Below are positions 30,194 to 47,045 of a stretch of 64,000 bases of DNA, one piece after another. Source of the stretch: Ideonella paludis (GTDB lineage Bacteria; Pseudomonadota; Gammaproteobacteria; Burkholderiales; Burkholderiaceae_C); NCBI RefSeq assembly GCF_018069865.1, contig NZ_JAGQDG010000003.1, forward strand, positions 186,001 to 250,000. Direction: 5' to 3'. The notes under the pieces are model-generated. The model was not told the origin of the DNA and did not search any database. It saw only the letters and a list, made by a program, of their open reading frames with translations. Every line of letters starts with the position of its first letter. The stretch's first letter is position 1. The position numbers were made by a program, and so were the translations under genes.

Positions 30194-30592
30194 ATGACGT
30201 CTGTCTCTGTCGCTCGCCTCTACCTGCTCGCTTCGGCCTTAGGCCTGGTGCCCATCGCTTTGTCCTATGGGCTTGCACCTGCGGAAGTCCTCCCTCGGGT
30301 CTTGGATCTCTCCGTGGGAAGCAGAGATTTGACGCACATCTTCCGAGCCATCATGGGGCTTTACTTTGCCTTTGTGGCGATGTGGCTCGTGGGCGCGTGG
30401 AAGCCGCGCTGGATTCGCACGGCCATCCTGCTGGAAGTTCTCTTCATGGGAGGGTTGGCGGCGGGTCGAGCCCTGAGTTTTCTCATGGACGGCGTGCCCA
30501 GCCCCATGCTCACGTTCTACTTCGCGGCCGAGGCGGTGTCCGCAGTGATCGGTCTTGTCTTGCTTCGACGTTTGCCAGCCACGGTGTCCTGA
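30194..30592 (+). CDS. DUF4345 family membrane protein
   Basis: A 132-residue protein with four predicted transmembrane helices, of the DUF4345 family (typical segment HIFRAIMGLYFAFVAMWL). Function unknown. The 150 nt upstream hold no gene and no convincing promoter. It is followed by the P-loop kinase gene on the same strand after 87 nt, with no clear terminator between. Confidence 0.8.
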   Translation: MTSVSVARLYLLASALGLVPIALSYGLAPAEVLPRVLDLSVGSRDLTHIFRAIMGLYFAFVAMWLVGAWKPRWIRTAILLEVLFMGGLAAGRALSFLMDGVPSPMLTFYFAAEAVSAVIGLVLLRRLPATVS

Positions 30593-30679: not shown

Positions 30680-31264
30680 ATGCAGATTCTGATCACCGGC
30701 GCTTCTGGCAGCGGCACCAGCACTTTGGGTGCCGCACTCGCTGAGGCTCTGCAGGGTCGTCACGTGGACGGTGACGACTGCTATTGGCTGCCTACCACGC
30801 CGCCTTTCTTGAGCAAGCGCCCCGCGCATGAACGTGCCGAGATGGTGTGCCGTGCCTTGCAAGCCCCCGGCCCCATCGTGATGAGCGGATCGGTGGTGGG
30901 TTGGGGCCACGACATTGAAGACGCCTTCGATCTGATCGTCTTTTTAACCCTGCCCACCGCACTGCGCGTCGAGCGCTTGCGCCAGCGCGAGATCGAACGC
31001 TTTGGCCACGCTGACCCGGCTTTTCTGGCCTGGGCCGCTCAGTATGAGCAAGGCCCACCTGAGGGCCGCAGCTTGGCCAAGCACTTGGCTTGGTTGGCGC
31101 AGCGCAGCTGCCCCGTGCTGCATTTGGATGGGGATTTGTCAGTGGCGCAGCGGCTGTCGAACGTGCTTCAATGGCTGAATTCGCGCACTCAGCCACAAGG
31201 CTCGCAGCAGTTGCGTATTGATCTGCCCGCCACACTTGATGACTCACATCCTTCCGCTCGGTGA
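30680..31264 (+). CDS. Uncharacterised P-loop kinase-like protein
   Basis: A small cytosolic protein of 194 residues with Walker A GASGSGTST (residues 7-15) and the adenylate-kinase-like segment VDGDDCYWLPTTPPFLSKRP, which marks a widespread but uncharacterised kinase family. A LID-like region (RVERLRQREIERFGH) follows. It presumably phosphorylates a small molecule. Start at 30680 was chosen to place the P-loop at the N-terminus. Its 3' end overlaps the next gene by 26 nt, so the two are probably coupled. Confidence 0.78.
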   Translation: MQILITGASGSGTSTLGAALAEALQGRHVDGDDCYWLPTTPPFLSKRPAHERAEMVCRALQAPGPIVMSGSVVGWGHDIEDAFDLIVFLTLPTALRVERLRQREIERFGHADPAFLAWAAQYEQGPPEGRSLAKHLAWLAQRSCPVLHLDGDLSVAQRLSNVLQWLNSRTQPQGSQQLRIDLPATLDDSHPSAR

Positions 31265-32528
31265 CGTCCTCGCCCTCGATGCCGAGGGCACCCTCATCAA
31301 CCCTTGCCGCCGCGACCTGATTGCGCCACCGTGGTCCGCTGCTGTAGAGGCCATCGTCGAGGCCTATTGCGCCCATTTCGGCACCCGCTTGCACAGCGTT
31401 TATCTGCGCGGCTCAGTGGCCAAGGGTGGGGCCATTGAAGGCGTGGCCGACATCGATAGCTTTGCGGTGCTGCACTCTGAGCCTGGAGACTCTGACGAGG
31501 CATGGGTCGCTGCGCTGCAGGCGCGCATGAGCAAAGAGTTCTCTTTTCATACAGGGCTGGAGGTGAGCCTGGTGTCCCATCGCACGGTGCGCGAGGACCC
31601 GAAGGCCAAGGTCTGGCCCTTCTTGATCAAGACCCAATCTTTGTGTCTTTGGGGAGAGGACTTGGCCCCCAGCCTGCCCGGCTATCGGCCCGGGCCAGCA
31701 CTGGCTGCGCATGCGCACCAGTTGCAGGCGGACCTTCAGGCCTTTCAAGCTGAATGTCCAGAAGGTGACACGGCCGAGATGGCCCAAGACATCCGCGAGT
31801 GGTGCCAATGGATCATGAAGCGCGTGGTGCGCAGCGGCTTTGAGCTGACGATGGCGCGGGAGCGCACTTACACCCGCGATCTCTATCCTTGCTATACGGC
31901 CTTTGCATGCCATTACCCTGAGCGAGCGCCGCAGATGCGACAGGCGCTGCAATGGGCGATTGCGCCCGCGGACACGAAGCAGCCCCTAGAGCAGTTCTTG
32001 GAGGATTTCGGGGGCTGGTTGGTGAGCGAGGTGGCCGCAGTGTTCCGTCGCCCCGAGGGGCCGTGCCACATCCGCCCAGGTACGCCGCTGGACGCGCCTC
32101 AAGTGTCTACCCTGGTGTGCAGTCTGACAGACGCGATGTTGGTGGATCCGCAAAGCGAGGAGACACAGGCCTTTTATGCGTGCATGCAGCCCCATTCGTT
32201 TGCGTTAACCATGGCCAAGCCAGATCGCTTTTTTCTCGTGGCCGAGCGCGACGAGCGCGTGGTGGGCATGATCATGGTGAAGGACCTGAGCTATGTGGGT
32301 CAGTTCTTCGTGGCTGCCGATGTGCAGGGCCAAGGCATAGGCTCGGCGCTCTGGGCCGCTGCGTTGTCACGTGTGCAGTGCGAACGTGGCGCCACGGAGT
32401 TCACCGTCTATGCCAGCATCGCGGCGGAGCCGGTGTATCGGCGATTCGGGTTCCTTCCGACAGGTCCAGCCACGGTGCAGGGCGGCTTTCACTGCGTGCC
32501 GATGTGCCGGGTGGCAGGCGTGGACTGA
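31239..32528 (+). CDS. Nucleotidyltransferase-GNAT acetyltransferase fusion protein
   Basis: A 429-residue two-domain protein. The N-terminal half (about 1-270) is a nucleotidyltransferase of the pol-beta fold, with the motif GSVAKGGAIEGVADIDSFAV: Gly-Ser followed by an Asp-x-Asp metal site. The C-terminal part (about 280-429) is a GNAT acetyltransferase with VVGMIMVKDLSYVGQFFV and the acetyl-CoA loop QGQGIGSALW. It has no signal peptide. Its start lies inside the end of the kinase gene. A start 21 nt upstream is possible. The architecture recalls bifunctional aminoglycoside-modifying enzymes, but the substrate is unknown. Confidence 0.82.
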   Translation: MTHILPLGDVLALDAEGTLINPCRRDLIAPPWSAAVEAIVEAYCAHFGTRLHSVYLRGSVAKGGAIEGVADIDSFAVLHSEPGDSDEAWVAALQARMSKEFSFHTGLEVSLVSHRTVREDPKAKVWPFLIKTQSLCLWGEDLAPSLPGYRPGPALAAHAHQLQADLQAFQAECPEGDTAEMAQDIREWCQWIMKRVVRSGFELTMARERTYTRDLYPCYTAFACHYPERAPQMRQALQWAIAPADTKQPLEQFLEDFGGWLVSEVAAVFRRPEGPCHIRPGTPLDAPQVSTLVCSLTDAMLVDPQSEETQAFYACMQPHSFALTMAKPDRFFLVAERDERVVGMIMVKDLSYVGQFFVAADVQGQGIGSALWAAALSRVQCERGATEFTVYASIAAEPVYRRFGFLPTGPATVQGGFHCVPMCRVAGVD

Positions 32529-32584: not shown

Positions 32585-34138
32585 TTAGAGTTCGTCCACC
32601 TGCCCCCGCAACCACGCTGCCCGCTCTGAAATCGCCGCCCGCTCCTGGGGCTCAAATTTCTCCAACTGCCGCAGCACCATGCTCAAGCGCGGGTTGTGGG
32701 CAAACCGCTCGCGGTGCCGCTCAAAGAAATCCCAGTAGAGGGCATTGAAGGGGCAGGCTAGATCGCCGGTGCGGGCTTGGCGTTGGTAGGCGCAGCCTTG
32801 GCAGTAGTCGCTCATGCGGTGGATGTAGGCGGCGCTGGCCACATAGGGCTTGGTGGCCAGCAGGCCGCCATCGGCAAACTGGCTCATGCCCACGGTGTTG
32901 GGCAGCTCCACCCATTCAAAGGCGTCGATATAGACGCCCAAATACCACTGGTGCACGGCGGCAGGGTGGATGCCGGCCAGCAGGCAGAAGTTGCCGATGA
33001 CCATCAGGCGCTGGATGTGGTGGGCATAGGCCGTCTCTAGCGATTGGACTATGGCGGTGCGCAGGCAGCGCATCTGGGTCTGGCCCGTCCAGAACCAGGC
33101 GGGCAGCGGCGCGTGATGACCCAGCGCGTTGCGCTGTTCATAGCCCGGCATGTGGGCCCAGTAAATGCCGCGCACATACTCGCGCCAGCCCAGCACTTGG
33201 CGGATGAAGCCTTCGGTGGCGGCCAGGGGCGCAGCGCCGGACCGGTACGCAGCCTCTGCAGCTTGCACCACTTCGCGCGGGTTCAGCATTTTGGTGTTGA
33301 GCGCGAAGGACAGCAGGGAGTGAAACAGCCGGGGGCTCTGGCTGCTCATGGCGTCTTCATAGTCGCCGAAGTGGGGCAGGGTGTGGGTGACGAAGGCCTG
33401 CAGTTGGGCCAGGGCCTCGGCGCGGTTCAGCGGCCAGCGCAGGCTTTCAGCCTGGGGCTCGCCAAAGGTGGCCACACCGGCCTGCACCACGGTCTGCCAG
33501 AGCGCCGAATGGTCGTGGCTGGGGCGGCTGTCGGCGGGCGGTGCGGGGTGGCCCGGCCAGGGCTTGCGGTTCTCGGGGTCAAAGTTCCAGCGGCCGCCTT
33601 CGGGCTGGCCTTGGGCATCCAGCAGCACGCCGTGCTGCTGGCGCATGCGCCGATAAAAGGCTTCCATCAGCCAGCGCTGGCGGCCCTTGAACTGGGTGGC
33701 TAGATCCTCACGCTCGGTGTAGAAATGCGCGCTGCTGACCATGCTGCAGGCATGGGGCTGGGCGGCGCACCAGTGCTTGAGCTGCGCATCCAGCCGCCAC
33801 TCATCCGGCGCTTGGTACTCAAAGCAACTTGCCGAGTAGGCCTGCATCAGCGCGGCCAAGTTGTCGGGCAGCGTCTGGCGGTTGCTGGGGTCGTCCAGGG
33901 CCACATAGCGCACGCGGTGGCCCGCCTCGCGCAAGTGCCGCGCAAAGTCGCGCATGGCCGCCAGAATGGCCAGCACTTTCTGGGCATGGTGGCGCACATA
34001 GTCGGTTTCTTGCCGCACCTCCATCAAGACATAGACCACCTCGTCGTCGACCTGCTCAAACCAGGGGTGCAGGGGGTTGAGCTGGTCGCCCAGCACCAAG
34101 CGCAGGGTGTGGGCCGGCGTGGGGCGGCGCGGGCTCAT
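32585..34138 (-). CDS. Iron-sulfur cryptochrome/photolyase (prokaryotic 6-4 photolyase type)
   Basis: A 517-residue flavoprotein of the FeS-BCP group (PhrB/CryB), which repairs (6-4) photoproducts or acts as a photoreceptor. The N-terminal alpha/beta domain (LRLVLGDQLNPLHPW) holds the antenna; the C-terminal domain binds FAD and a 4Fe-4S cluster. Cys358, Cys446, Cys449 and Cys462 have the same spacing as the cluster ligands of Agrobacterium PhrB, so the cluster should be intact. The gene overlaps the upstream DUF2256 gene by 4 nt, a pairing often seen for this photolyase type. Confidence 0.93.
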   Translation of the reverse strand: MSPRRPTPAHTLRLVLGDQLNPLHPWFEQVDDEVVYVLMEVRQETDYVRHHAQKVLAILAAMRDFARHLREAGHRVRYVALDDPSNRQTLPDNLAALMQAYSASCFEYQAPDEWRLDAQLKHWCAAQPHACSMVSSAHFYTEREDLATQFKGRQRWLMEAFYRRMRQQHGVLLDAQGQPEGGRWNFDPENRKPWPGHPAPPADSRPSHDHSALWQTVVQAGVATFGEPQAESLRWPLNRAEALAQLQAFVTHTLPHFGDYEDAMSSQSPRLFHSLLSFALNTKMLNPREVVQAAEAAYRSGAAPLAATEGFIRQVLGWREYVRGIYWAHMPGYEQRNALGHHAPLPAWFWTGQTQMRCLRTAIVQSLETAYAHHIQRLMVIGNFCLLAGIHPAAVHQWYLGVYIDAFEWVELPNTVGMSQFADGGLLATKPYVASAAYIHRMSDYCQGCAYQRQARTGDLACPFNALYWDFFERHRERFAHNPRLSMVLRQLEKFEPQERAAISERAAWLRGQVDEL

Positions 34139-34299
34139 GGCTGCGGGCCTGGGGTGGATGAGCCGCGAGCGCGGCGGCAGCGCTCAGAGCAGTACTTCAC
34201 CTCGGTCCAGACTTTGGCCCATTTTTTGCGCCACACCATGGGCAGGCCGCAGTGGGCGCAGGGCTTCTGGGGCAGGTCGGCCTTGTGCTTCATGCGCAT
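34135..34299 (-). CDS. DUF2256 small zinc-ribbon-like protein
   Basis: A 54-residue protein, MRMKHKADLPQKPCAHCGLP onward, with a CxxC (CAHC) and a CxxxC (CSERC) pair that should bind one zinc. The WRKKWAKVW segment is the DUF2256 hallmark. It often sits beside or fused to cryptochrome/photolyase genes; function unknown. ATGA overlap with the photolyase gene and only 2 nt to the second photolyase gene indicate a tight operon. Confidence 0.88.
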   Translation of the reverse strand: MRMKHKADLPQKPCAHCGLPMVWRKKWAKVWTEVKYCSERCRRARGSSTPGPQP

Positions 34300-34301
34300 G
34301 G

Positions 34302-35963
34302 TCAAAAGTCCAAGGTTTGTTGCACGGCTTCAGGGGCCGAAGAGCGCCTGCGACGTGTGCCGGGCGCTGCATCCAGCCGGTCCCGCAGCGGGCCGCGCGA
34401 GCCGTGCTTGTCGACGATGGCCGCACGTGCGGCGCGCACCTCGGGCTGGGCGCGCAGCGTATGCACGCGGGCCTTGGCCTCGCGGGTGGCCGTGCTCAAG
34501 TCCACCAGAGGCACGGGGATGTCCACTCCCACCTGCACGCCGCAATGGGCTTGCACACTGGCGGGCATGCGCCAGGGCTCCAGCAGCCAGGTGTCGGGCA
34601 CGCGGCGCAGGGCCGGCAGCCAGCGGCGCACAAAGTGGCCGTGGGGGTCGTGGTCTTGGGCTTGCTTGAGGGGGTTGTAGACCCGCGTGGTGTTGATGCC
34701 GGTGGTGCCGGCCTGCATTTGCATCTGGCTCCAGTGGATGCCGGGCTCGTAGTCCAAAAACTCACGCGCCAGCCACAGGCCCACCGGCCGCCAATGCAGC
34801 CACAAGGCATAGCTGGCCACCGAGACCAACATCGCCCGCATCCGAAAATTGAGCCAGCCGGTGTGGTGCAGCATGGCCACGCAGGCATCCACCAGCGGCC
34901 AGCCGGTGCGGCCATTCATCAGGGCTTGCAGGCGGACGGGGTCGGCCACCTCATCGCGCAGGCCGTCGTAGCCACGGTGCAGATTGCGCCACTCCAGCTC
35001 GGGCTCAGACTCTAGCTTCTGGATGAAGTGACAGTGCCAGTGCAAGCGGCTCATAAAAGCCTGTAAGCCGCGCTGCTGGCGCTGGCCACTGGTGGAGCTG
35101 AGCTGGGCCATGCGCCGCTGGGTGGCTTGCACCACTTCGCGCAGGCCCAGGCATCCCCAGGCCAGATAGGGCGAGAGTCGGGAGCAGGCGCTGGGGGCTG
35201 AGAGCGGCGAGGAGATGCCGCCCCGGTAGTCGCCGCAGCGCTCGGCCAAGAAGTCGGTCAACACCTGCAGCCCGGCCCGCCGCCCACCGAGCTGCCGGGC
35301 GGGCGGCTGGTGCGACCCCAGGCCCAGATCGGTGGGGCTGGGCCAAGGCCCGCCTGCCCAGGGCATCGTCTGCCTGTGGAGGCCGATCTCTGGGAGTGCT
35401 GTCAGACCTCTCAGGCTGCTGTCCTGAGAGACCGTCAGCCCTCTCAGGCTGCTGTCCTGAGAGACCGTCAGCCCTCTCAGGCTGCCGGGGGCCGGCGCGG
35501 GCAAGGTCGCCTGCCCCATGTGTTGCTGCCAGCGGGTGGCCCAGTGATCGCGGTTTTTCAGGCGTCGCACCACGCCATGCTGGGCAAACTCGTGCCACGC
35601 CACGCTGCGGCTGCGGCACCACTGGCCCACGGCCCGGTCGCGGGCATAGCTGGTGGCATTGCCGGTCTCCTCGTGGGAGAACAGGGCCTCAAACGGCTGG
35701 GCCGACCACAGCGCTTCCAAGACCTCCACCATCTCGCCCACGGCCAGGTGCAGGGGCACGCCGGCGCGCTGCAGTTGACGCTGCAGGTCGGCCACGCATT
35801 CTTGCCAGAAGGCATAGTGCTGCAAAGAAGCGTCCTCCTGGGCCCAGAGCGTCGGCTCCACCACCACCAGGGCCAAGAGCGGGCCGCGCGCGGCGGCCTG
35901 CATCAGCGGGGCATGGTCATGCACCCGCAGGTCGCGTTTGAACCAGACGACGCTGGTGCTCAT
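34302..35963 (-). CDS. Deoxyribodipyrimidine photolyase/cryptochrome family protein
   Basis: A 553-residue photolyase-family flavoprotein. It starts MSTSVVWFKRDLRVHDHAPL, the classical N-terminus of the antenna domain; the open frame extends upstream into the SDR gene but without family sequence. The FAD-binding domain has GRTGWPLVDACVAMLHHTGWLNFRMRAMLVS and GIHWSQMQMQAGTTG. In the linker between the domains (about residues 158-186) an 11-residue unit (SLRGLTVSQDS) is repeated, caused by a 33-bp palindromic tandem repeat in the DNA. Most likely repairs cyclobutane dimers; the exact class is uncertain. Confidence 0.9.
   Translation of the reverse strand: MSTSVVWFKRDLRVHDHAPLMQAAARGPLLALVVVEPTLWAQEDASLQHYAFWQECVADLQRQLQRAGVPLHLAVGEMVEVLEALWSAQPFEALFSHEETGNATSYARDRAVGQWCRSRSVAWHEFAQHGVVRRLKNRDHWATRWQQHMGQATLPAPAPGSLRGLTVSQDSSLRGLTVSQDSSLRGLTALPEIGLHRQTMPWAGGPWPSPTDLGLGSHQPPARQLGGRRAGLQVLTDFLAERCGDYRGGISSPLSAPSACSRLSPYLAWGCLGLREVVQATQRRMAQLSSTSGQRQQRGLQAFMSRLHWHCHFIQKLESEPELEWRNLHRGYDGLRDEVADPVRLQALMNGRTGWPLVDACVAMLHHTGWLNFRMRAMLVSVASYALWLHWRPVGLWLAREFLDYEPGIHWSQMQMQAGTTGINTTRVYNPLKQAQDHDPHGHFVRRWLPALRRVPDTWLLEPWRMPASVQAHCGVQVGVDIPVPLVDLSTATREAKARVHTLRAQPEVRAARAAIVDKHGSRGPLRDRLDAAPGTRRRRSSAPEAVQQTLDF
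35408..35481. repeat. 33-bp palindromic tandem repeat inside the photolyase gene
   Basis: Two complete 33-bp units starting at 35408 and 35441, plus the first arm of a third at 35474. Each complete unit contains an inverted repeat: CTCTCAGG, a 7-nt loop (CTGCTGT), and CCTGAGAG. Unit length is a multiple of three, so the reading frame stays open and adds 11 residues per copy in the interdomain linker. The copies are identical, which suggests recent expansion. Confidence 0.85.
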
Positions 35964-35976
35964 GGCATGGCGCGCT

Positions 35977-36690
35977 CTACCAGGGCAAGGCCTGGCCGTC
36001 ATAGGCGAAGAAGCCGCCCGACTGCTCAGGCCGCAGGCCATCCAACACTCGCAGCATGTCGGCCACCGCATGCTCGGCAGGGCGGCCGATTTCTGCGCCG
36101 TTGAACGGGGCCGAGAGGGCCGAGGTGACGGTGCCGGGGTGCAGGGCCACCAGCACGGCCTGGGGCTGGCTGCGCGCCACTTCAATGGCCGCCGTCTTGA
36201 CCAGCATATTGAGCCCGGCCTTGGAGGCGCGATAGCTGTACCAGCCGCCCAGGCGGTTATCGCCTATGCTGCCCACCTTGGCCGAGAGGAAGGCCATCAC
36301 CGCCCGTTCGCGACACAGCAGCGGCACAAAGTGCGCCAACACCAAGGCGGGGCCGATGGTGTTGATGCGAAAGACCTCGCTCATCTGCGTGGTGTTGAGC
36401 TGGGCCAGGCGCTTCTCTGGCCCGCCGCTGGCCGTGTGCAAGACGCCAGCCGCATGCACGATCACCTGAAACGGCCCCAAGGCTTTGAGCTGCTGGGCGG
36501 CCTGGGCCACGCTGGCGTCGTCCACCAAGTCCAGTGCGGGTGTGGAGTGCCGATGCAGCCCGATCACCTGCGCACAGCGCGGGTCGGCCCGCAGCGCCTC
36601 GACAAAAGCGTTGCCGATGGCGCCGCTGGCCCCAATGACGAGAGCACGATAACCCTCAGGCAGTGAGGGCAGCACGGAGAAGTCGCTCAC
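35977..36690 (-). CDS. Short-chain dehydrogenase/reductase
   Basis: A Rossmann-fold oxidoreductase of about 237 residues. The cofactor loop ALVIGASGAIGNAF, the HAAGVLH segment, the active-site YSYRASKAG (Tyr-x3-Lys) and LHPGTVTSAL are all present. The GTG at 36690, after AAGG, was chosen because it clears the lipocalin stop; an ATG at 36729 would add 13 residues and overlap that gene. SDRs of this type recur in proteobacterial photolyase/lipocalin clusters induced by light or singlet oxygen. Substrate unknown. Confidence 0.85.
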   Translation of the reverse strand: MSDFSVLPSLPEGYRALVIGASGAIGNAFVEALRADPRCAQVIGLHRHSTPALDLVDDASVAQAAQQLKALGPFQVIVHAAGVLHTASGGPEKRLAQLNTTQMSEVFRINTIGPALVLAHFVPLLCRERAVMAFLSAKVGSIGDNRLGGWYSYRASKAGLNMLVKTAAIEVARSQPQAVLVALHPGTVTSALSAPFNGAEIGRPAEHAVADMLRVLDGLRPEQSGGFFAYDGQALPW

Positions 36691-37255: not shown

Positions 37256-37404
37256 ATTGAACTCATTAGTCACAAAATAAACCACATAGTATCAGTGCTT
37301 GGCAAGTGCTGCAGAGTGCAGGGCCGGGGATTGCGCCGAAGCCCGCCCGCGCGAGGGCTGGATCGTGTCAACATAGCGGGTTCCACTCCGCCAAAACCCC
37401 TGCT

Positions 37405-40400
37405 ATGTCCTCTGGCCTGATCCGTATCCGTGGTGCTCGTCAGCACAACTTGAAGAACCTGGACCTGGACATCCGCACGGGGGAGATGACCGTGGTCACC
37501 GGGCCCAGCGGCTCGGGCAAGTCCAGCCTGGTGTTCGACACCCTGTATGCCGAAGGCCAGCGCCGCTATGTCGAGACCTTCTCGGCCTATGCCCGGCAGT
37601 TTTTGGACCGCATGGACCGCCCTGCGGTGGACCGCGTGGACGGCGTGCCCCCGGCGATTGCGATTGACCAGACCAACCCGGTGCGCACCAGCCGCTCCAC
37701 CGTGGGCACGATGACGGAGTTGAACGACCACCTCAAGCTCCTCTTCGCCCGGGCCGCTCAACTCTTTGACCAAGACACCGCGCTGCCCGTGCGGCATGAC
37801 ACGCCTGAGACCATTTATGCCGACTTGCAGGCACGGGCGCTCATAGCCAACGACCCACGCTTGATCTTCACCTTTGCGGTGGAGCTGCCCGCCAACACCA
37901 CGGCTGAGCAACTGGAGCAGTGGCTGCAGGCCAGCGGCTTTGCGCGGGTGCAGGCGGAACGCGTCGTCGGCGATAAGAAAGTCCTTGATGTGGTGGCGGA
38001 CCGCTTCCGCCTCGGCAACGCTGAGCGGGTGCGGGTGATGGAGGCCATTGAGCTGGCGCTGAAGCGCGGCCAGGGCCGGCTCACCGTCTATGCCCTCGGT
38101 GAGGGCGATGCCACCGATTTCTGGCGTTATTCCACCGGCCTGCATTGCCCCGAGAGCGACCGCCGTTACGGCGAGCCGCAACCTGCGCTGTTCAGCTTCA
38201 ACTCGGCCTATGGCGCCTGCGAGACCTGCCGTGGCTTTGGCCGGGTGATTGGCGTGGACTTTGGCCTGGTGATCCCCGATGAGCGCAAGACTTTGCGCAA
38301 CGGTGCTATCAAGCCGCTGCAAACCCCGGCGTGGAAGGAATGCCAGGACGACCTGGTGAAGTACGCGGGCGAGGCCGGCATCCCGCGCGACACGCCCTGG
38401 GCCCAGCTCACGGCCGCGCAGCGCGAGTGGGTGCTGGAAGGCTCACCGAACTGGACGGGCAATTGGAACAAGCAGTGGTATGGCGTGCGCCGCTTCTTCG
38501 AGTACCTGGAGAGCAAGGCCTACAAAATGCACATCCGGGTGCTGCTGTCCAAGTACCGCAGCTACACCCCTTGCGGCACCTGCGGCGGGGCACGCCTCAA
38601 GCTCGAAGCCCTGCTGTGGCGCTTGGGCTCTAAAGCCAATGCGGATGCCGTGCTGCCGCCCGAGCAGCGCAAGCTGCCGCTGGGTGCCGCCTGGAGCGCG
38701 GAGCAATTGCAGGCACTGCCAGGCTTGAACCTGCACGACCTGATGCTGCTGCCCATCAGCCGCCTGCGCCGCTTTTTTGATGAATTGACCCTACCGGACG
38801 TCCTGCGCGACGAGGCCCTGAAGTTGTTGTTAGAAGAGGTGCGCACCCGCATCAAGTACCTTTGCGATGTGGGCCTGGGCTATCTGACGCTGGACCGCCA
38901 AAGCCGCACGCTCAGCGGCGGCGAGGTGCAGCGCATCAACCTGACCACGGCGCTGGGCACCTCGCTGGTCAACACCTTGTTTGTGCTGGACGAGCCCAGC
39001 ATTGGCCTGCACCCGCGTGACATGAACCGCATCGTGCAGGCCATGCACCGCCTGCGCGACGCCGGCAACACCCTGGTGGTGGTGGAGCATGACCCTGCCG
39101 TGATGCTGGCCGGCGACCGCCTGATCGACATGGGCCCCGGCCCCGGCGAGAAAGGCGGCCAGATCGTGTTTGACGGCGGCCCCGAAGCCGCCCGCGATGC
39201 CGACACACTGACCGGCGCCTACTTGGGCGCGCGCAAGGTGGTGGGCCTGGGTTTCAAGCGCTTTGTCGATGAGGCCACGCCCAAGCTGATCTTGCAAGGC
39301 GCACGCCAGAACAACTTGCGCAACCTGACCGTGGCCTTCCCGCTGCAGCGGCTGACGGTGGTGACGGGCGTCTCCGGCTCGGGCAAGAGCACCTTGGTGC
39401 AAGACGTGCTGGTGCCGGCGCTGTTCCGCCACTTTGGCCATGCCACGGAGACGCCGGGCACCTTTGACCAACTGCTGGGCGCCGACCATCTGGCCGACGC
39501 GGTGTTTGTGGACCAAAGCCCCATCGGCAAAACGGCCCGGTCCAACCCCGCCAGCTATGTGGGCGCGTTTGACGAGATCCGCAAGCTCTTTGCCGTGGCC
39601 CCGCTGGCACAAGAGCGCAACTACACCGCGGGCATGTTCAGCTTCAATGCGGGCGATGGCCGCTGCCCCACCTGCGGCGGCTCGGGCTTTGAGCATGTGG
39701 AGATGCAGTTCCTCTCTGACGTCTACCTGCGCTGCCCCGATTGCGATGGGCGCCGCTACCGGGCGGAGTTGCTGGAGGTCAAGATCGAGCGTGGTGACAA
39801 GAGTTTGTCCATCGCCGATGTGCTGGACCTGACCGTGTCCGAAGCCGTCAAAGCCTTTGCGGGCGACCGCGAGGTGCTGCGCACCTTGCAGCCGATTGTG
39901 GACGTGGGCCTGGACTATGTGCGGCTGGGCCAGCCTGTGCCCACGCTGTCCGGTGGCGAAGCCCAACGCCTGAAGCTGGCCGGCTTCTTGGCCGAGGCGG
40001 CCGCCTCGCCGCGCCAGGCCGTGGCCAAAAAGGGCGTGCTCTATGTGTTTGACGAGCCCACCACCGGCCTGCACTTTGACGACATCGCCAAGCTGATGCG
40101 CGCCCTGCGCAAGCTTTTGGAAGCCGGCCACTCGCTGCTGGTGATTGAGCACAACCTGGATGTGATCCGCGCAGCCGATTGGCTGATCGACCTGGGGCCG
40201 GAGGGCGGCGATGAGGGCGGCGCGCTGGTGGCCGAGGGCACGCCCGAGGCGATGCGCGAGCACCCCACCTCGCACACCGGCCGGGCGCTGCGCGAATACG
40301 ATGGCGCACTTCGGGCGGCTGAGAAAACCGCCGACGGCGCCTACCTGGGCGCTGTGGTGCGCGAGCGGGCGGTGGCCGACGACGCCATCCGCATCGTCAA

Positions 40401-43056
40401 CGCCCGCGAGCACAACCTCAAAGCGCTGAATGTGGACATTCCGCGCGGCCAGTTCACGGTGGTCACCGGGGTGTCGGGCTCGGGTAAATCAACCTTGGCT
40501 TTTGACATCTTGTTCAACGAGGGCCAGCGCCGCTACTTGGAGAGCTTGAACGCCTACGCTCGCTCCATCGTGCAGCCGGCCGGCCGGCCCGAGGTGGACG
40601 CCGTCTGGGGCATTCCGCCCACGGTGGCGATTGAGCAGCGCCTCTCCCGCGGGGGCCGCAAGAGCACGGTGGCCACCACCACCGAGGTTTGGCATTTCCT
40701 GCGCCTGTTGTGGGTCAAGCTGGGCCTGCAGCATTGCGTGCATGACGGCGCGCCCGTGCGCCCGCAGTCGGTGGAGAGCATTGCGGCGCAGATCCTGCGC
40801 GACCACAGAGGCCAGCACATTGGCTTGCTCGCACCGCTGGTGGTGAACCGCAAGGGCCTCTATACCGACCTGGCCAAATGGGCCAAGGGCAAGGGCTACA
40901 CGCATTTGCGAGTGGATGGCGAGTTCACCCCCGTGGCGCCGTGGCCCAAGTTGGACCGCTTCAAAGAACACACGCTGGAGCTGCCGGTGGGCGACCTGCA
41001 AGTGCGACCCGAGAACGAAGCCGAGCTGCGCCACTTGCTGGCGCTGGCGCTGGATGTGGGCAAGGGCGTGATGCACCTGCTCTCGCCCTTGGACGGCTTG
41101 GCCGGTAAGTTGGCCGCAGGCGCCAGCACCGTAGGCTTGGGCGAGGTCAAGGTCTTCTCCACCAAGCGGGCCTGCCCGCAGTGCGGCACCAGCTACCCCG
41201 AGCTGGACCCGCGCATGTTCAGCTACAACTCCAAGCATGGCTGGTGCGGCACCTGCGTGGGCACCGGCTTGGCGCTGACGCGCGAGCAGCGCAAAGCCTT
41301 TGACGACAGCGTGCGCGACGACGACAACAAGGGCCGGGAGCAGAGCTTTGCCGCCGAGGAGCCCGAGGTCGAAGGCATTGCCGGCGAGCCCTGCCCCGAC
41401 TGCCACGGCGCCCGCCTGAACCCCGCCGCGCGCGGCGTGAGCTTCAACGGCAAAGGCATCCACGAGGTGGCGGCCTGGTCGGTGCAAGAGGCCCGTGCTT
41501 GGGTGGCTTCGCTGCACCTAGAGGGCCGTGATGCAGGCATTGCCCGCGACGTGATCACCGAGATTCAAGGGCGCCTGGAGTTCCTCGAGGAAGTGGGCTT
41601 GAGCTATCTGACGCTGGACCGCGCCGCGCCCACTTTGTCGGGCGGCGAGGCCCAGCGCATCCGTCTGGCCGCTCAGTTGGGCAGCAATTTGCAGGGCGTG
41701 TGCTACGTGCTGGACGAGCCCACCATTGGCCTGCATGCACGCGACAACACCATCTTGCTCAAGGCCTTGCAACGCCTGAGCGACCAGGGCAACACCTTGG
41801 TGGTGGTGGAGCATGACGAAGACACCATCCGCCGGGCGGACCACCTGATCGACATTGGCCCCGGTGCCGGCCGGCGCGGTGGTGAGGTGGTGGCGCAGGG
41901 CAGCCCGGCCGAGGTGGCTGCCAACCCGGCCTCGCTGACGGGCCGCTTTTTGCAGCATCCGCTCAAGCACCCCTTGCACGCGCGCCGTGAGGTGAGCGCT
42001 GAGACCCCTGCCCTGCAACTGCGCGGTGCCCATCTGCACAACCTGCAGCAGGTGAATGTGGACGTGCCGCTGCAGCGCTTGGTGGCGGTGACGGGGGTGT
42101 CGGGCTCGGGCAAGTCCACCTTGGCACGCGACGTGCTGCTGGCCAATGTGGCCGCGCTGGTGGCCGCCAAAGGGCGCAAGCCCGATGAGAGCGCAGCGGG
42201 CTCGGTGCTGCTGAGCGGCTGCCAAGCCTTGAGCGGCTGGGGCACGGTGGACCGCGTGCTGGAAGTGGACCAAACGCCGATTGGCAAAACCCCGCGCTCC
42301 TGCCCCGCCACCTACATCGGCTTTTGGGACACCATTCGCAAGCTCTTCACCGAGACCTTAGAGGCCAAGGCCCGGGGCTACACCGCGGCGCGCTTCTCCT
42401 TCAACACCGGGCAAGGCCGCTGCCCGGCCTGCGAGGGCCAAGGCATGCGCACCATCGAGATGAGCTTTTTGCCCGATGTGAAGGTGCCTTGCGATGTCTG
42501 CCACGGCCAGCGCTTCAATGCCGAGACCCTGGCTGTCACCTGGCGCGGCAAAAGCATTGGCGATGTGCTGAGCATGGAGGTGGACGAAGCAGTGGACTTC
42601 TTCGCCTCCATGCCCACCATTGCCCACCCGCTTCAATTGCTGAAAGACGTGGGCCTGGGTTATCTGACCCTGGGCCAGCCCAGCCCCACGCTGAGCGGCG
42701 GAGAGGCTCAACGCATCAAATTAGTGACCGAGTTGAGCAAGGTGAGGGATGACGTGACGAGGCGCGGCCAAAAGGCACCGCATACGCTCTATGTGCTGGA
42801 CGAACCCACCGTGGGCCTGCACATGGCCGATGTGGAGCGCCTGATCCATGTGCTGCACCGCTTGGTGGATGGCGGCCACAGCGTGGTGGTGATCGAGCAC
42901 GACTTGGACGTCATCGCCGAGGCCGACTGGGTGCTGGACCTGGGGCCGGAAGGCGGCACCGGCGGTGGCCGGGTGGTCTGCGCCGGCACGCCGGAGACCT
43001 TGGTCAAACTGGGCACGCACACGGGCGTGGCCATCCAGCCCGTGCTGGCCCGCTGA
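37405..43056 (+). CDS. uvrA: Double-length UvrA excinuclease subunit
   Basis: A 1883-residue protein, twice the usual UvrA length of about 940. It is made of two UvrA-like halves joined head to tail. Four Walker A motifs are seen near residues 31, 655, 1023 and 1565, and four LSGGE signatures near 502, 848, 1410 and 1762, each followed by DEP. Zinc-finger cysteines occur in both halves (near 753 and 1672, e.g. CPACEG...CDVC). UvrA recognises DNA lesions and loads UvrB. Such long forms exist in several proteobacteria beside a normal uvrA; whether this organism has another copy is not visible here. Start at [19 protein letters not shown]. No ribosome binding site is obvious. Confidence 0.92.
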
Positions 43057-43634: not shown

Positions 43635-46600
43635 TCAGGCCGCCAGCCATACAGCGTCCTCGACGCCCCGCCAGAGATGAACTCTGTCGGCAGCCGAAAA
43701 GCTCAGTAGCTCCTGCGAGCTTTGGCTTTGCGTGGCGCCGGTGTCAAGCTGGGTTGAGGTGTCTGCCTGGCCAAATAGGCTCGTGTCTTGAAGAAGGTCA
43801 TTCAAGGCCAAAGGCTCGACGATCGAGATGCTGACGGCCTTGGAGCGAGCGGACTCGTTGCCCGCGAGGTCGAAATAGCTGATGGCCACCTCGTGCTGTC
43901 CCAAGCTCAGTTCCTGATTCGGTTTGACAGTGCGTCCATCAACGCTCAATTGGGAGGCGACCGGCCCGCCATCAATCCACAGAGCCACAAAGTGGTCTGC
44001 CGGCGGCGATGCAAAGACAAACTCTGGCTGTTTGATGCTGGTGATGCCATCGTCAGACCGGACGCCGTCGTCGTCGATGGCACGAAGTGCAGGCGCGCTA
44101 ACGGGAGCATCAGGTCGGGTGATGTCAATCAGGATCCGCAGGCTCTCCGAGGCCTCTGACAAAGCCCCTGAAGTACTACGGTATCTCACGGCCACGTCGT
44201 GCCAGCCTTCTTGCAATGGGTCGCGAGAAGAAATGTAACTGTCATAGCCTGTGCGGGTGATGGTGGATTCGACTCGCTTGCCGTCAATCAGAAGCTCCGC
44301 AACAGTATCGGGCGAATAAGTGACCTTGAATTCGGGCCACATTTCGTTCGTGATGTCGTCGCTCCAGAAGGTTCTTTCACTGCTTCCGTCTGCGGTGTGG
44401 GCAATCCAAGACTGAGGCCCTCGGTCATCAGAAGCAGTCAGATCTGGTTTCAATGGCGGTAAATCAGGCACCCGTGTGTCGATCGTGACATCCAGGTCGC
44501 CCCGGGCCTTCGGACCGTTGTTGCCTGCCGCATCACTGACGTAGAAATTGAAGGTATGCCGTCCATCGTTGAGTGGGTTCACTGGGGTCAGAGTCCCCTT
44601 TTGCTTGTCCCACAGTGATGCCACGGCCACGCCATCCACCAACAACTGCGCTGACGCATAGTCCCTGGTGTGACCCCAGCCGTTGACGATCAATTCAGGA
44701 TGGAACATTGCGGGCGCGTTGATGCACGTCAGGTTGTCACCCTGATAGCCCAGGTCCGAAGCCGCGTCCAAACGCAGTGGATCAAGGGGGAACTGAACGG
44801 GGTCCTTGGTGTCGATGGTCAGTCGCTGGGAGTAAATCATGGGCATGAAATCATTGCCACTCACGGCACCGACCATGATTTGGTGCTCACCGTCTGACAA
44901 CGGGTTGCTTGCTTGGATCAGACCCGAGGCAGCGTCCCATTGGCTGGCCACAACTTGACCATCGACCATCAAGCTTAGACTGTAGCCTTGGGGCAGTTCC
45001 GGGTGTCCGACAAAGAAGCGAGGTGTACTCACTCGGGTCAGACCGTCGATGTTGCTGATTCCTGAGTCATCGCGATCCAAGAGGTCTAGTCGATCAGGGA
45101 GCCAAGACGCCACGACACCGACCACCGTTGAGCCGGACAGTGTTGATTCCACGCCGTGTTGATTGACCCGAGTCCAAGCGACTTGGTGATCTTGGCAGGC
45201 TTGGTTGGGCAGATTGGAGCCAAATGCTTGGTCCATCTGCACCTGACCCGTCGCGGCGTCGTAGCTGGAGGCCACCAGCTTGCCGTCAACATAGAGGCGG
45301 GCGGTTTCATCGGGCCCTAAGCGACCGATGTCGAACACCGGTCGAGCACTTTGGCCAATGATCAACACGCTGCCCTGGCCGCCATCGTCGAACTCGGGCA
45401 GAAGCGTTGGTGACTGGGTGGGTGGTTCGGCGACAGCATCAATGTAGAGGGTGAGGGTAGGCGAAATGATGACAGGAGCCCCTACCAAATCACGTGGATA
45501 GCCATAGGCAATCTGGCACTCCCCCTCAGGCAGAGGTTGGTCTACCTGGAGAATGCGCTGACTCCTGTCTACCCATGAGAAACCCACCGGCACTCCGTTG
45601 ACGATCAGAGCTAGACCATCCTGAATTGCGGCATCCGCAGGCAGTTGGAGCTTTGGACGCTGGTTGGCAGTTATGCCGTCTTGGTCGGACGAGCCGGTGT
45701 CGCTTATTGCGAGAAGGGCAATAGGATTTGCAGGGCGAGGGTCAATGATGACTTGGCACCAAGCTTCACTAGTCCCACCGCGTAGATCCGTAACGGTGTA
45801 GTTGAATCCGGTGATTGTTCGCTCTACCGTTGTCGTGGGAGCGTAGTAGTCGACCCACAAGCCGTTGAATCCGGCAATGGAAGATCCATTGATTGCCGTT
45901 CCGATTGACGGCCTGCTCACATCCGCAATAACGAAACGATCCTCGTTGACATCGCTATCGTTCTGTAGGACATAGGCTCTTACCGTTTGCCCTGTGTAGA
46001 CGTGAAGCACATCATCTTGGACTGTCGGCGCGGTGTTGGTTGAATCGACGATGCGGATATACACCCTAGCCGAAGCACTGCCACCTTTGCTGTCGCTGAC
46101 GGTGTAGCTGAAGCTGGTTTCGTTGCTGAAAAAAAACGGGCTGGGCGCTGTGAATTGAATCCGTCCGTCGTCCAGTTGGGTGAGATCTCCACTGCCTGAC
46201 ACGCTGCCCAATTCCAGTTTCAGAGGATCACCGTCCGGGTCCATGTCGTTGGCCAGAAGCTGGTCCACCGTTCCGGTGACTGTCGTCCCCGCTTCAATGG
46301 TGATCCACTCATCTTGCACTACCGGCGCTGAGTTGACGGGCGCAGTCACATTGATGATCAGCTTGCCTTCCGTGCGCAGGCCTTGGGCGTTTTCGACGGT
46401 GTAGCGGATGACTTCTTGGCCGACGAAATCCTTGGCGGCCACGTAGGTCAACTGACCTGAAGTGTCGCGGGTCAAGGCGCCATGTTGGGCCTCGCCGATG
46501 CTCACGATCTTGAGGGGGCCATCTAGGGGGTCGACGTCGTTGGCCAGCAAATCGTTCTCGTGGCCGGACACCGGTGTGCCTGCCACCACTGAGACTAGCT

Positions 46601-46913
46601 CGTCCTGAACGACCGGAGCATCGGCTGCGGCAACAATGGTCAAGTGGACCGTGCCCTGGCTCAATTGGCCTCGCTCATCTCGGACGAGGTAGGTGAATTC
46701 GTCGGTGCCGGTGTAGCCTGGCGCTGGGGTGTAGATGAGGATGCCGGCGGGGTCTTGGCTCAAGGTGCCATGAGTGGTTGACCCGATTTGAACTACCTCC
46801 AGCAGACCACCTTCTGGGTCGACGTCATTGGCCAGCAACATGGCCAAGGTGCCGAAGACGGTGGTTCCGGTGATGACGGTCACGTACTCGTCGTTGACAC
46901 GTGGGACGACCAT
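43635..46913 (-). CDS. Large Ig-like repeat protein
   Basis: A 1092-residue protein made almost wholly of beta-sandwich repeats. Residues about 1-375 hold four copies of a cadherin-like unit (VxDExVxVxxGTxVxG...LLANDxDPxxG...YTVxDxxG). The rest holds five to six copies of another Ig-like unit, with DDxGxxxDGIT...VDGxxVAS and LxDGxHxIxxxxxDxAGN features as in large adhesins. No Sec signal peptide, LPXTG or RTX calcium repeats are seen; the C-terminus (SAADRVHLWRGVEDAVWLAA) may be an unrecognised export signal. GC content is visibly lower than in neighbours, suggesting transfer. The ATG at 46913 follows AGGAG by 8 nt; an ATG at 46934 is also possible. Confidence 0.85.
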   Translation of the reverse strand: MVVPRVNDEYVTVITGTTVFGTLAMLLANDVDPEGGLLEVVQIGSTTHGTLSQDPAGILIYTPAPGYTGTDEFTYLVRDERGQLSQGTVHLTIVAAADAPVVQDELVSVVAGTPVSGHENDLLANDVDPLDGPLKIVSIGEAQHGALTRDTSGQLTYVAAKDFVGQEVIRYTVENAQGLRTEGKLIINVTAPVNSAPVVQDEWITIEAGTTVTGTVDQLLANDMDPDGDPLKLELGSVSGSGDLTQLDDGRIQFTAPSPFFFSNETSFSYTVSDSKGGSASARVYIRIVDSTNTAPTVQDDVLHVYTGQTVRAYVLQNDSDVNEDRFVIADVSRPSIGTAINGSSIAGFNGLWVDYYAPTTTVERTITGFNYTVTDLRGGTSEAWCQVIIDPRPANPIALLAISDTGSSDQDGITANQRPKLQLPADAAIQDGLALIVNGVPVGFSWVDRSQRILQVDQPLPEGECQIAYGYPRDLVGAPVIISPTLTLYIDAVAEPPTQSPTLLPEFDDGGQGSVLIIGQSARPVFDIGRLGPDETARLYVDGKLVASSYDAATGQVQMDQAFGSNLPNQACQDHQVAWTRVNQHGVESTLSGSTVVGVVASWLPDRLDLLDRDDSGISNIDGLTRVSTPRFFVGHPELPQGYSLSLMVDGQVVASQWDAASGLIQASNPLSDGEHQIMVGAVSGNDFMPMIYSQRLTIDTKDPVQFPLDPLRLDAASDLGYQGDNLTCINAPAMFHPELIVNGWGHTRDYASAQLLVDGVAVASLWDKQKGTLTPVNPLNDGRHTFNFYVSDAAGNNGPKARGDLDVTIDTRVPDLPPLKPDLTASDDRGPQSWIAHTADGSSERTFWSDDITNEMWPEFKVTYSPDTVAELLIDGKRVESTITRTGYDSYISSRDPLQEGWHDVAVRYRSTSGALSEASESLRILIDITRPDAPVSAPALRAIDDDGVRSDDGITSIKQPEFVFASPPADHFVALWIDGGPVASQLSVDGRTVKPNQELSLGQHEVAISYFDLAGNESARSKAVSISIVEPLALNDLLQDTSLFGQADTSTQLDTGATQSQSSQELLSFSAADRVHLWRGVEDAVWLAA

Positions 46914-46917
46914 GGTT

Positions 46918-46980
46918 CTCTCTCCTGAGTTCATTGTTTTGATCACCTTTTTGAGGTGCAAGAACTCTATCAGGAGAGAG
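46918..46980 (-). promoter_or_regulatory. Structured 5' leader that hides the ribosome binding site of the Ig-repeat gene
   Basis: On the minus strand CTCTCTCCTG (46971-46980) pairs with CAGGAGAGAG (46918-46927), which contains the Shine-Dalgarno AGGAG. AGTTC/GAACT (46962-46966 with 46928-46932) extends the stem past a 4-nt bulge. An inner hairpin CACCT-CAAAA-AGGTG (46944-46958) covers the AAGGTGA that would serve the alternative ATG at 46934. Both possible ribosome binding sites are thus base-paired. No T-run follows, so it is not a terminator. Confidence 0.6.
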
Positions 46981-47045
46981 TGGCTATCCAAATGTCAAGA
47001 AGGTGGCATCCCCTCAATGAAGTCGAACGAATGGCTCAAGTTCAT

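What the first reader, a model, noticed from the sequence alone, without database searches (positions are those of the whole stretch)
30680..32528. Nucleotidyltransferase-acetyltransferase fusion overlapping a small P-loop kinase gene
One protein carries a pol-beta nucleotidyltransferase with a GS...DxD site and a GNAT domain with QGQGIG; its start lies within the end of a kinase gene. Nucleotidylation, acetylation and phosphorylation are the three ways in which aminoglycosides are modified, and bifunctional enzymes of this kind are known there. The fusion might be a drug-modifying or small-molecule-modifying unit not yet described. The two domains may instead have unrelated targets.
Basis: partly seen in the sequence, partly recalled or inferred. 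Interest (0 to 1): 0.6.

Follow-up and report, generated by a model that had tools for sequence, protein, structure and literature searches.

The report
Adenylyltransferase–acetyltransferase fusion beside a kinase
A bacterium carries one gene that joins two small-molecule-tagging enzymes next to a kinase gene, and a related bacterium joins the same three parts differently, which hints that they work together on some unknown compound.

Summary
At 31239-32528 (+) one intact 429-aa ORF joins a pol-beta nucleotidyltransferase (NTase; G58-S59, D71, D73, E108) to a GNAT domain (Q363GQGIG). It overlaps by 26 bp the end of a PRK06217-type P-loop kinase gene (30680-31264). There the NTase is alone and the kinase carries the GNAT (68%, 74% and 63% identity). 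All three parts are under purifying selection. Each fusion was seen only once in what was searched. The NTase family is widespread but sparse and otherwise stand-alone; one relative sits in a Pantoea NRPS/PKS cluster beside an exporter. Its active site lines up with AadA (D47, D49, E87), and its C-terminal helices resemble those of aminoglycoside NTases and HEPN proteins, but the model is poor. It fails the sequence tests for known ANT and AAC families. Best reading: an acquired bifunctional small-molecule-modifying enzyme, adenylylating and acetylating, in one cassette with a kinase; substrate unknown, not shown to be an aminoglycoside. The kind is known (ANT(3'')-Ii/AAC(6')-IId); the domains and the partner swap are new. 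Moderate interest.

The parts
30680..31264 (+). small P-loop kinase gene (PRK06217/AAA_18 type), 194 aa from ATG 30680
   Evidence: NF004861 205.3 bits, cut-off 203; PF13238 E 1.3e-7; 74% identical to the kinase half of L005:7503-8537
31239..32528 (+). NTase-GNAT fusion gene, 429 aa, ATG 31239
   Evidence: single open frame; Pfam and alignments
31239..32051 (+). NTase part, residues 1-271: palm with G58 S59, D71, D73, E108, then helical C-terminal part (about 150-270)
   Evidence: ends where the stand-alone L005 NTase ends
32055..32525 (+). GNAT part, residues 273-429, acetyl-CoA motif QGQGIG at 363-368
   Evidence: PF13673 E 1.3e-26; alignment A4
31239..31264 (+). 26-bp overlap of the kinase 3' end with the NTase-GNAT 5' end
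   Evidence: sequence
32028..32042 (+). possible internal Shine-Dalgarno (GAGGTG) and GTG start at 32040 for a free 162-aa GNAT; sequence only, no evidence of use
   Evidence: not seen in the L005 NTase end
30194..30592 (+). DUF4345 gene just upstream; shares the low GC3 of the cassette
   Evidence: PF14248 E 1.7e-21; GC3 0.73 against a window mean of 0.81

Best explanation
An acquired accessory cassette whose fusion protein modifies a small molecule in two ways. The N-terminal NTase transfers AMP from ATP to a hydroxyl (two metal-binding aspartates D71/D73, base E108, substrate held between the palm and the helical C-terminal part, as in AadA). The C-terminal GNAT moves acetyl from acetyl-CoA to an amino group. 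The neighbouring kinase, translated from overlapping DNA, most likely acts on the same or a related compound. Shown: domains, conserved catalytic residues, purifying selection, and re-partnering of the same three parts in a related species. Inferred: the activities, a common substrate, and a detoxification or self-protection role. The compound is unknown.
For: NTase catalytic residues align with AadA D47/D49/E87 (E87 is the base, passages of PMC6065190). In profile searches AadA was the best PDB match of A1 (E 0.0015); with the larger A5 it was third, after two minimal NTases (E 0.0036). The helical part matches ANT(6)-Ib, ANT(4'), LinB and AadA C-terminal parts among HEPN folds. Swap: kinase + NTase-GNAT here, NTase + kinase-GNAT in L005. 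A further P-loop protein (AAA_28) is fused to this GNAT type in G005. A close NTase relative lies in a Pantoea NRPS/PKS cluster beside an MFS exporter. dN/dS 0.16-0.21. Low GC3 of 0.71-0.75 fits acquisition.
Against: No membership in any ANT or AAC family by sequence. The NTase-GNAT fusion appears once only: 0 of 24 plasmid records cover 80% of it, and 0 of 12 other NTase matches in 299 genomes have a frame long enough. None of 14 other NTase loci (L075-L088) has a kinase of this family or a detected GNAT in the flank held. The fold model is poor (pLDDT 52). In L005 the NTase and the kinase-GNAT gene are 704 bp apart, with a divergent ORF between.
Confidence: 0.45

Rival explanations
1. Chance fusions without shared function: a GNAT gene in a hot spot of accessory genes lost its start and was read on from whichever gene happened to lie upstream, the NTase here and the kinase in Ideonella MAG2. 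The domains have unrelated targets.
For: Low GC3 accessory region; the parts are not linked elsewhere: GNAT near 3 of 22 other kinase loci and 0 of 14 other NTase loci scanned; each fusion was seen once.
Against: Two different in-frame fusions of the same GNAT to the other two members, kept under purifying selection in both species, and a third P-loop-GNAT fusion in another genus.
Confidence: 0.3
2. True aminoglycoside (aminocyclitol) resistance enzyme, ANT(3'')(9)-like plus AAC-like, as in ANT(3'')-Ii/AAC(6')-IId.
For: Same domain order as the known bifunctional enzyme (PMC6017855); D47/D49/E87 equivalents present; AadA and AAD(9) among the top matches.
Against: Far below the ANT cut-offs, no AadA_C, no AAC model; hhalign with AadA1 covers only 43 columns at 52% probability.
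Confidence: 0.12
3. Toxin-antitoxin-like unit: an MNT-type adenylyltransferase joined to a HEPN-type domain, with the GNAT as a further regulator.
For: Helical part tops the list with HEPN toxins (Z 10.9, rmsd 2.7, 115 aligned); the MntA model matches 4 of 6 family members, best E 1.6e-5.
Against: No R-x4-6-H motif (recalled HEPN RNase motif) in the C-terminal part of the window or L005 protein; both parts in one chain, as in ANTs; Z below 13 for helical bundles may mean only a common arrangement (note).
Confidence: 0.05
4. Modifier of a macromolecule (protein or tRNA AMPylation/acetylation) rather than of a small molecule.
For: GNAT weakly nearest to a RimI model; NTase also weakly like CCA and cyclase models. 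All weak.
Against: All these scores are far below cut-offs; accessory, sparse distribution (NTase in 2 of 16 genomes of the genus).
Confidence: 0.08

Closest known systems
ANT(3'')-Ii/AAC(6')-IId of Serratia marcescens (bifunctional aminoglycoside enzyme)
   Same: NTase and acetyltransferase in one chain, NTase named first; a fusion of two genes (the reference title given in PMC6017855 calls it a novel gene fusion).
   Different: Neither half of the present protein belongs by sequence to the ANT or AAC families tested; no antibiotic known; a kinase gene is attached.
AadA, ANT(3'')(9), and AAD(9) spectinomycin adenylyltransferase
   Same: GS...DxD and general base Glu in the same alignment columns; NTase palm plus helical C-terminal part.
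   Different: About 43 alignable columns with AadA1; no AadA_C match.
PRK06217 (NF004861) P-loop kinase family
   Same: Kinase passes the curated cut-off.
   Different: NCBIfam gives no function ('hypothetical protein'); relatives examined are not fused to a GNAT, except in L005.
MNT-HEPN (type VII) toxin-antitoxin
   Same: NTase palm and a HEPN-like helical part.
   Different: One chain, no R-x4-6-H motif, GNAT attached.

Membership tests
Aminoglycoside nucleotidyltransferase ANT(3'')/ANT(9) (AadA type) | GS...DxD and catalytic Glu (AadA D47, D49, E87) | tested here: met
   window G58 S59 D71 D73 E108 in the same columns; role of E87 from PMC6065190
Aminoglycoside nucleotidyltransferase ANT(3'')/ANT(9) (AadA type) | score over the curated NCBIfam cut-off | tested here: not met
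   NF012212 ANT(9) 10.7 bits against 340
Aminoglycoside nucleotidyltransferase ANT(3'')/ANT(9) (AadA type) | AadA_C domain (PF13427) | tested here: not met
   no match up to E 1 in 6 of 6 family members; the genome search with this model rang nowhere and shows nothing
Aminoglycoside nucleotidyltransferase ANT(3'')/ANT(9) (AadA type) | adenylylation of streptomycin or spectinomycin | not testable with these tools
   needs an assay
Aminoglycoside acetyltransferase AAC | match to an AAC family model | tested here: not met
   no AAC model among NCBIfam matches up to E 1 for the whole protein or up to 1e-3 for 6 of 6 GNATs
GNAT superfamily | GNAT fold model and Q/R-x-x-G-x-G/A motif (motif recalled) | tested here: met
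   PF13673 E 1.3e-26; QGQGIG 363-368
PRK06217 kinase (NF004861) | score over the curated cut-off of 203 bits | tested here: met
   205.3 bits
MNT-HEPN toxin-antitoxin | HEPN R-x4-6-H RNase motif (recalled) | tested here: not met
   regex finds none in window or L005 C-terminal parts
MNT-HEPN toxin-antitoxin | HEPN fold of the helical part | tested here: inconclusive
   Z 10.9, rmsd 2.7, 115 aligned, but a poor model and a helical bundle

The most novel reading that the evidence does not exclude
A three-activity small-molecule modification module (adenylylation, acetylation, phosphorylation) whose acetyltransferase is an exchangeable C-terminal partner: fused to the NTase here, to the PRK06217 kinase in Ideonella sp. 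MAG2, and, in a related GNAT, to an AAA_28 P-loop protein in another genus. The swap would be a natural 'Rosetta stone' saying that NTase, kinase and GNAT act on one unknown compound, and would place the functionless PRK06217 family in natural-product or antibiotic modification.
Probability: 0.25. Interest if true: 0.6.

Novelty: new variant of a known kind. Interest (0 to 1): 0.38.

Why it matters
If the three domains share a substrate, it would give a first functional lead for the PRK06217 kinases and for a sparse NTase family spread over several phyla, and perhaps a new antibiotic- or metabolite-modifying enzyme in environmental bacteria. If not, it is a clean example of neutral re-fusion of neighbouring accessory genes.

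Tried and rejected
1. Remnant idea: the kinase tail (residues 167-194...RIDLPATLDDSHPSAR) looks by eye like a GNAT N-terminus, which would mean that the kinase was once fused to a GNAT here too. Rejected: alignment scores were reached by 847 of 1000 (own GNAT) and 735 of 1000 (L005 GNAT) shuffles, the GNAT profile gave no hit, and the DNA test gave 932 and 797 of 1000. So which arrangement is older is undecided.

2. General linkage of the three families: not supported. A GNAT was found near the kinase in 3 of 22 other kinase loci scanned (L044, L047, L067; flanks about 9 kb for 6 loci and 1.5 kb for 16; one further kinase locus, L073, was not scanned; the L044 and L047 GNATs were themselves in the profile, so those two hits are partly circular; a GNAT-like ORF 8 kb away in L046 was not counted) and near 0 of 14 other NTase loci (L075-L088). 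L089 was listed but was not in the scanned file; its record annotates a GNAT 18 kb from the NTase.

3. IMG/VR: scan with the NTase alignment, 2 loci; with the GNAT alone, none. Phage records: none. PADLOC: only weak hits. tRNAs: none in the window. Promoters and terminators: no more than in shuffles. The AadA_C genome search rang nowhere, also not in the controls, and says nothing.

4. Structure: AlphaFold of the fusion is poor (pLDDT 52.1), so its Foldseek list (best AAD(9), E 0.005) is only a hint; the pdb_via list covers essentially residues 148-274, and families missing from it are not excluded. Kinase model pLDDT 69.9, nearest uridine and adenylate kinases: P-loop kinase fold, no substrate implied.

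5. Papers: two full-text searches for NTase-GNAT-kinase fusions gave 0 papers and 2 not on the matter (listings only). That is not proof of absence from print.

Full report
What is there. On the + strand a P-loop kinase gene (30680-31264, 194 aa) overlaps by 26 bp a 429-aa gene (31239-32528) that joins a nucleotidyltransferase (residues 1-271) to a GNAT domain (273-429). The GNAT is strong (PF13673, E 1.3e-26), the NTase weak on its own (PF01909, E 0.034, below the cut-off) but clear as a family: 6 of 6 aligned members match PF01909, and G58, S59 and D73 are invariant in 17 of 17 aligned relatives. The kinase passes NCBIfam NF004861 (205.3 against 203 bits), a family without known function. 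No start codon lies at the GNAT boundary itself; the nearest in-frame one upstream is a GTG at 32040 with GAGGTG in front, which could give a free GNAT. That is sequence only, and the L005 NTase end does not show it.

The partner swap. The only close relative in the genome collection is Ideonella sp. MAG2 (L005). At the same chromosomal place, downstream of a 3HB-oligomer hydrolase gene (84% DNA identity), it has a stand-alone NTase (282 aa, 68% identical) and, 704 bp on with a divergent ORF between, one gene that joins the kinase (74%) to the GNAT (63%). So the GNAT is fused to the NTase in one species and to the kinase in the other. The NTase ends at the same residue in both. Both sets are under purifying selection: dN/dS 0.212/1.28 for the kinase, 0.229/1.44 for the NTase, 0.339/1.58 for the GNAT (dS near saturation). 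A kinase-tail remnant of an older fusion was tested and not supported, so the older arrangement is undecided.

How widespread. NTase: 2 of 16 genomes of the genus (own and G673, whose contig 1 has the length of the L005 contig); 2 of 299 in the family and 2 of 369 in the class with the single sequence, own included; 10 of 299 in the phylum with a profile. All 12 other matches have frames of 259-316 aa, too short for a GNAT. In plasmids 24 records matched and none covered 80% of the fusion. Kinase: 17 of 398 genomes; none of the 17 other matches has a frame over 300 aa, so no kinase-GNAT fusion; none among 6 further ones in the family sample, nor in 13 plasmid records (none covering 80%). GNAT type: 13 other matches in the family sample, one of which (G005, L053) is fused to an AAA_28 P-loop domain (E 9.6e-32); in the class sample 6 others, none fused as read from their ORFs.

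What the NTase is like. It aligns with AadA1 (taken from plasmid R46) so that D71, D73 and E108 meet D47, D49 and E87; E87 is the catalytic base of AadA (PMC6065190, abstract and passages). The Glu is kept in the four nearest members (window, L005, L087, L007), is Asp in several others, and is lost in L008 and in L081, L082 and L084-L086, so farther relatives may act otherwise. A profile of 6 members finds AadA first in the PDB (E 0.0015); of 17 members, minimal NTases first and AadA third. hhalign with AadA1 covers only 43 columns, probability 52%. The fold model is poor overall (pLDDT 52.1), better in the helices 150-270. That part resembles HEPN proteins (Z 10.9, rmsd 2.7, 115 aligned) and the C-terminal parts of ANT(6)-Ib (Z 9.1), ANT(4') (8.8) and LinB (8.7), and AadA 5luh over residues 28-271 at Z 7.2 with rmsd 8.4; for helical bundles these Z values may mean only a common arrangement. 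There is no R-x4-6-H motif.

Context. DUF4345, kinase and NTase-GNAT genes have GC3 0.71-0.75 against a mean of 0.81 (sd 0.05, 44 ORFs chosen by script) in the window, which fits an acquired cassette of about 2.4 kb between 3HB-oligomer hydrolase/alpha-beta hydrolase genes and photolyase-type genes. A 35%-identical NTase in Pantoea stewartii lies in an NRPS/PKS cluster between a carboxymuconolactone decarboxylase-family gene and an MFS transporter, with a penicillin acylase and a LysE-family translocator. The L087 relative follows a JmjC/cupin protein.

Judgement. The fusion recalls the known bifunctional ANT(3'')-Ii/AAC(6')-IId (passages of PMC6017855), but neither half belongs to the ANT or AAC families by the tests made. 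I read it as a small-molecule-modifying fusion in an acquired accessory cassette (0.45), with chance fusion of accessory neighbours as the main rival (0.3). The substrate is unknown. The new point is the partner swap, seen in two genomes only.

Noticed in passing
window 37306-43056 (+): A 1916-aa UvrA-like protein with two UvrA_inter stretches and several ATPase motifs, apparently a tandem-duplicated UvrA.
   Followed up: partly
window 43635-46991 (-): 1118-aa protein of cadherin-like and bacterial Ig repeats, with low GC3 (0.66), probably a surface or secreted protein.
   Followed up: partly
window 32585-36116 (-): A photolyase-related (DPRP) gene next to a DNA photolyase gene.
   Followed up: partly
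L053:7778-8764: AAA_28 P-loop domain fused to the same GNAT type in another genus of the family.
   Followed up: partly
L007 / L089 (NZ_CP046586.1): Pantoea stewartii plasmid NRPS/PKS cluster with NTase, MFS, penicillin acylase and a MupA-type monooxygenase; the NTase may be a self-protection or tailoring enzyme.
   Followed up: partly
window 32028-32042 (+): GAGGTG six bases before an in-frame GTG at the NTase-GNAT junction, a possible internal start for a free GNAT.
   Followed up: partly
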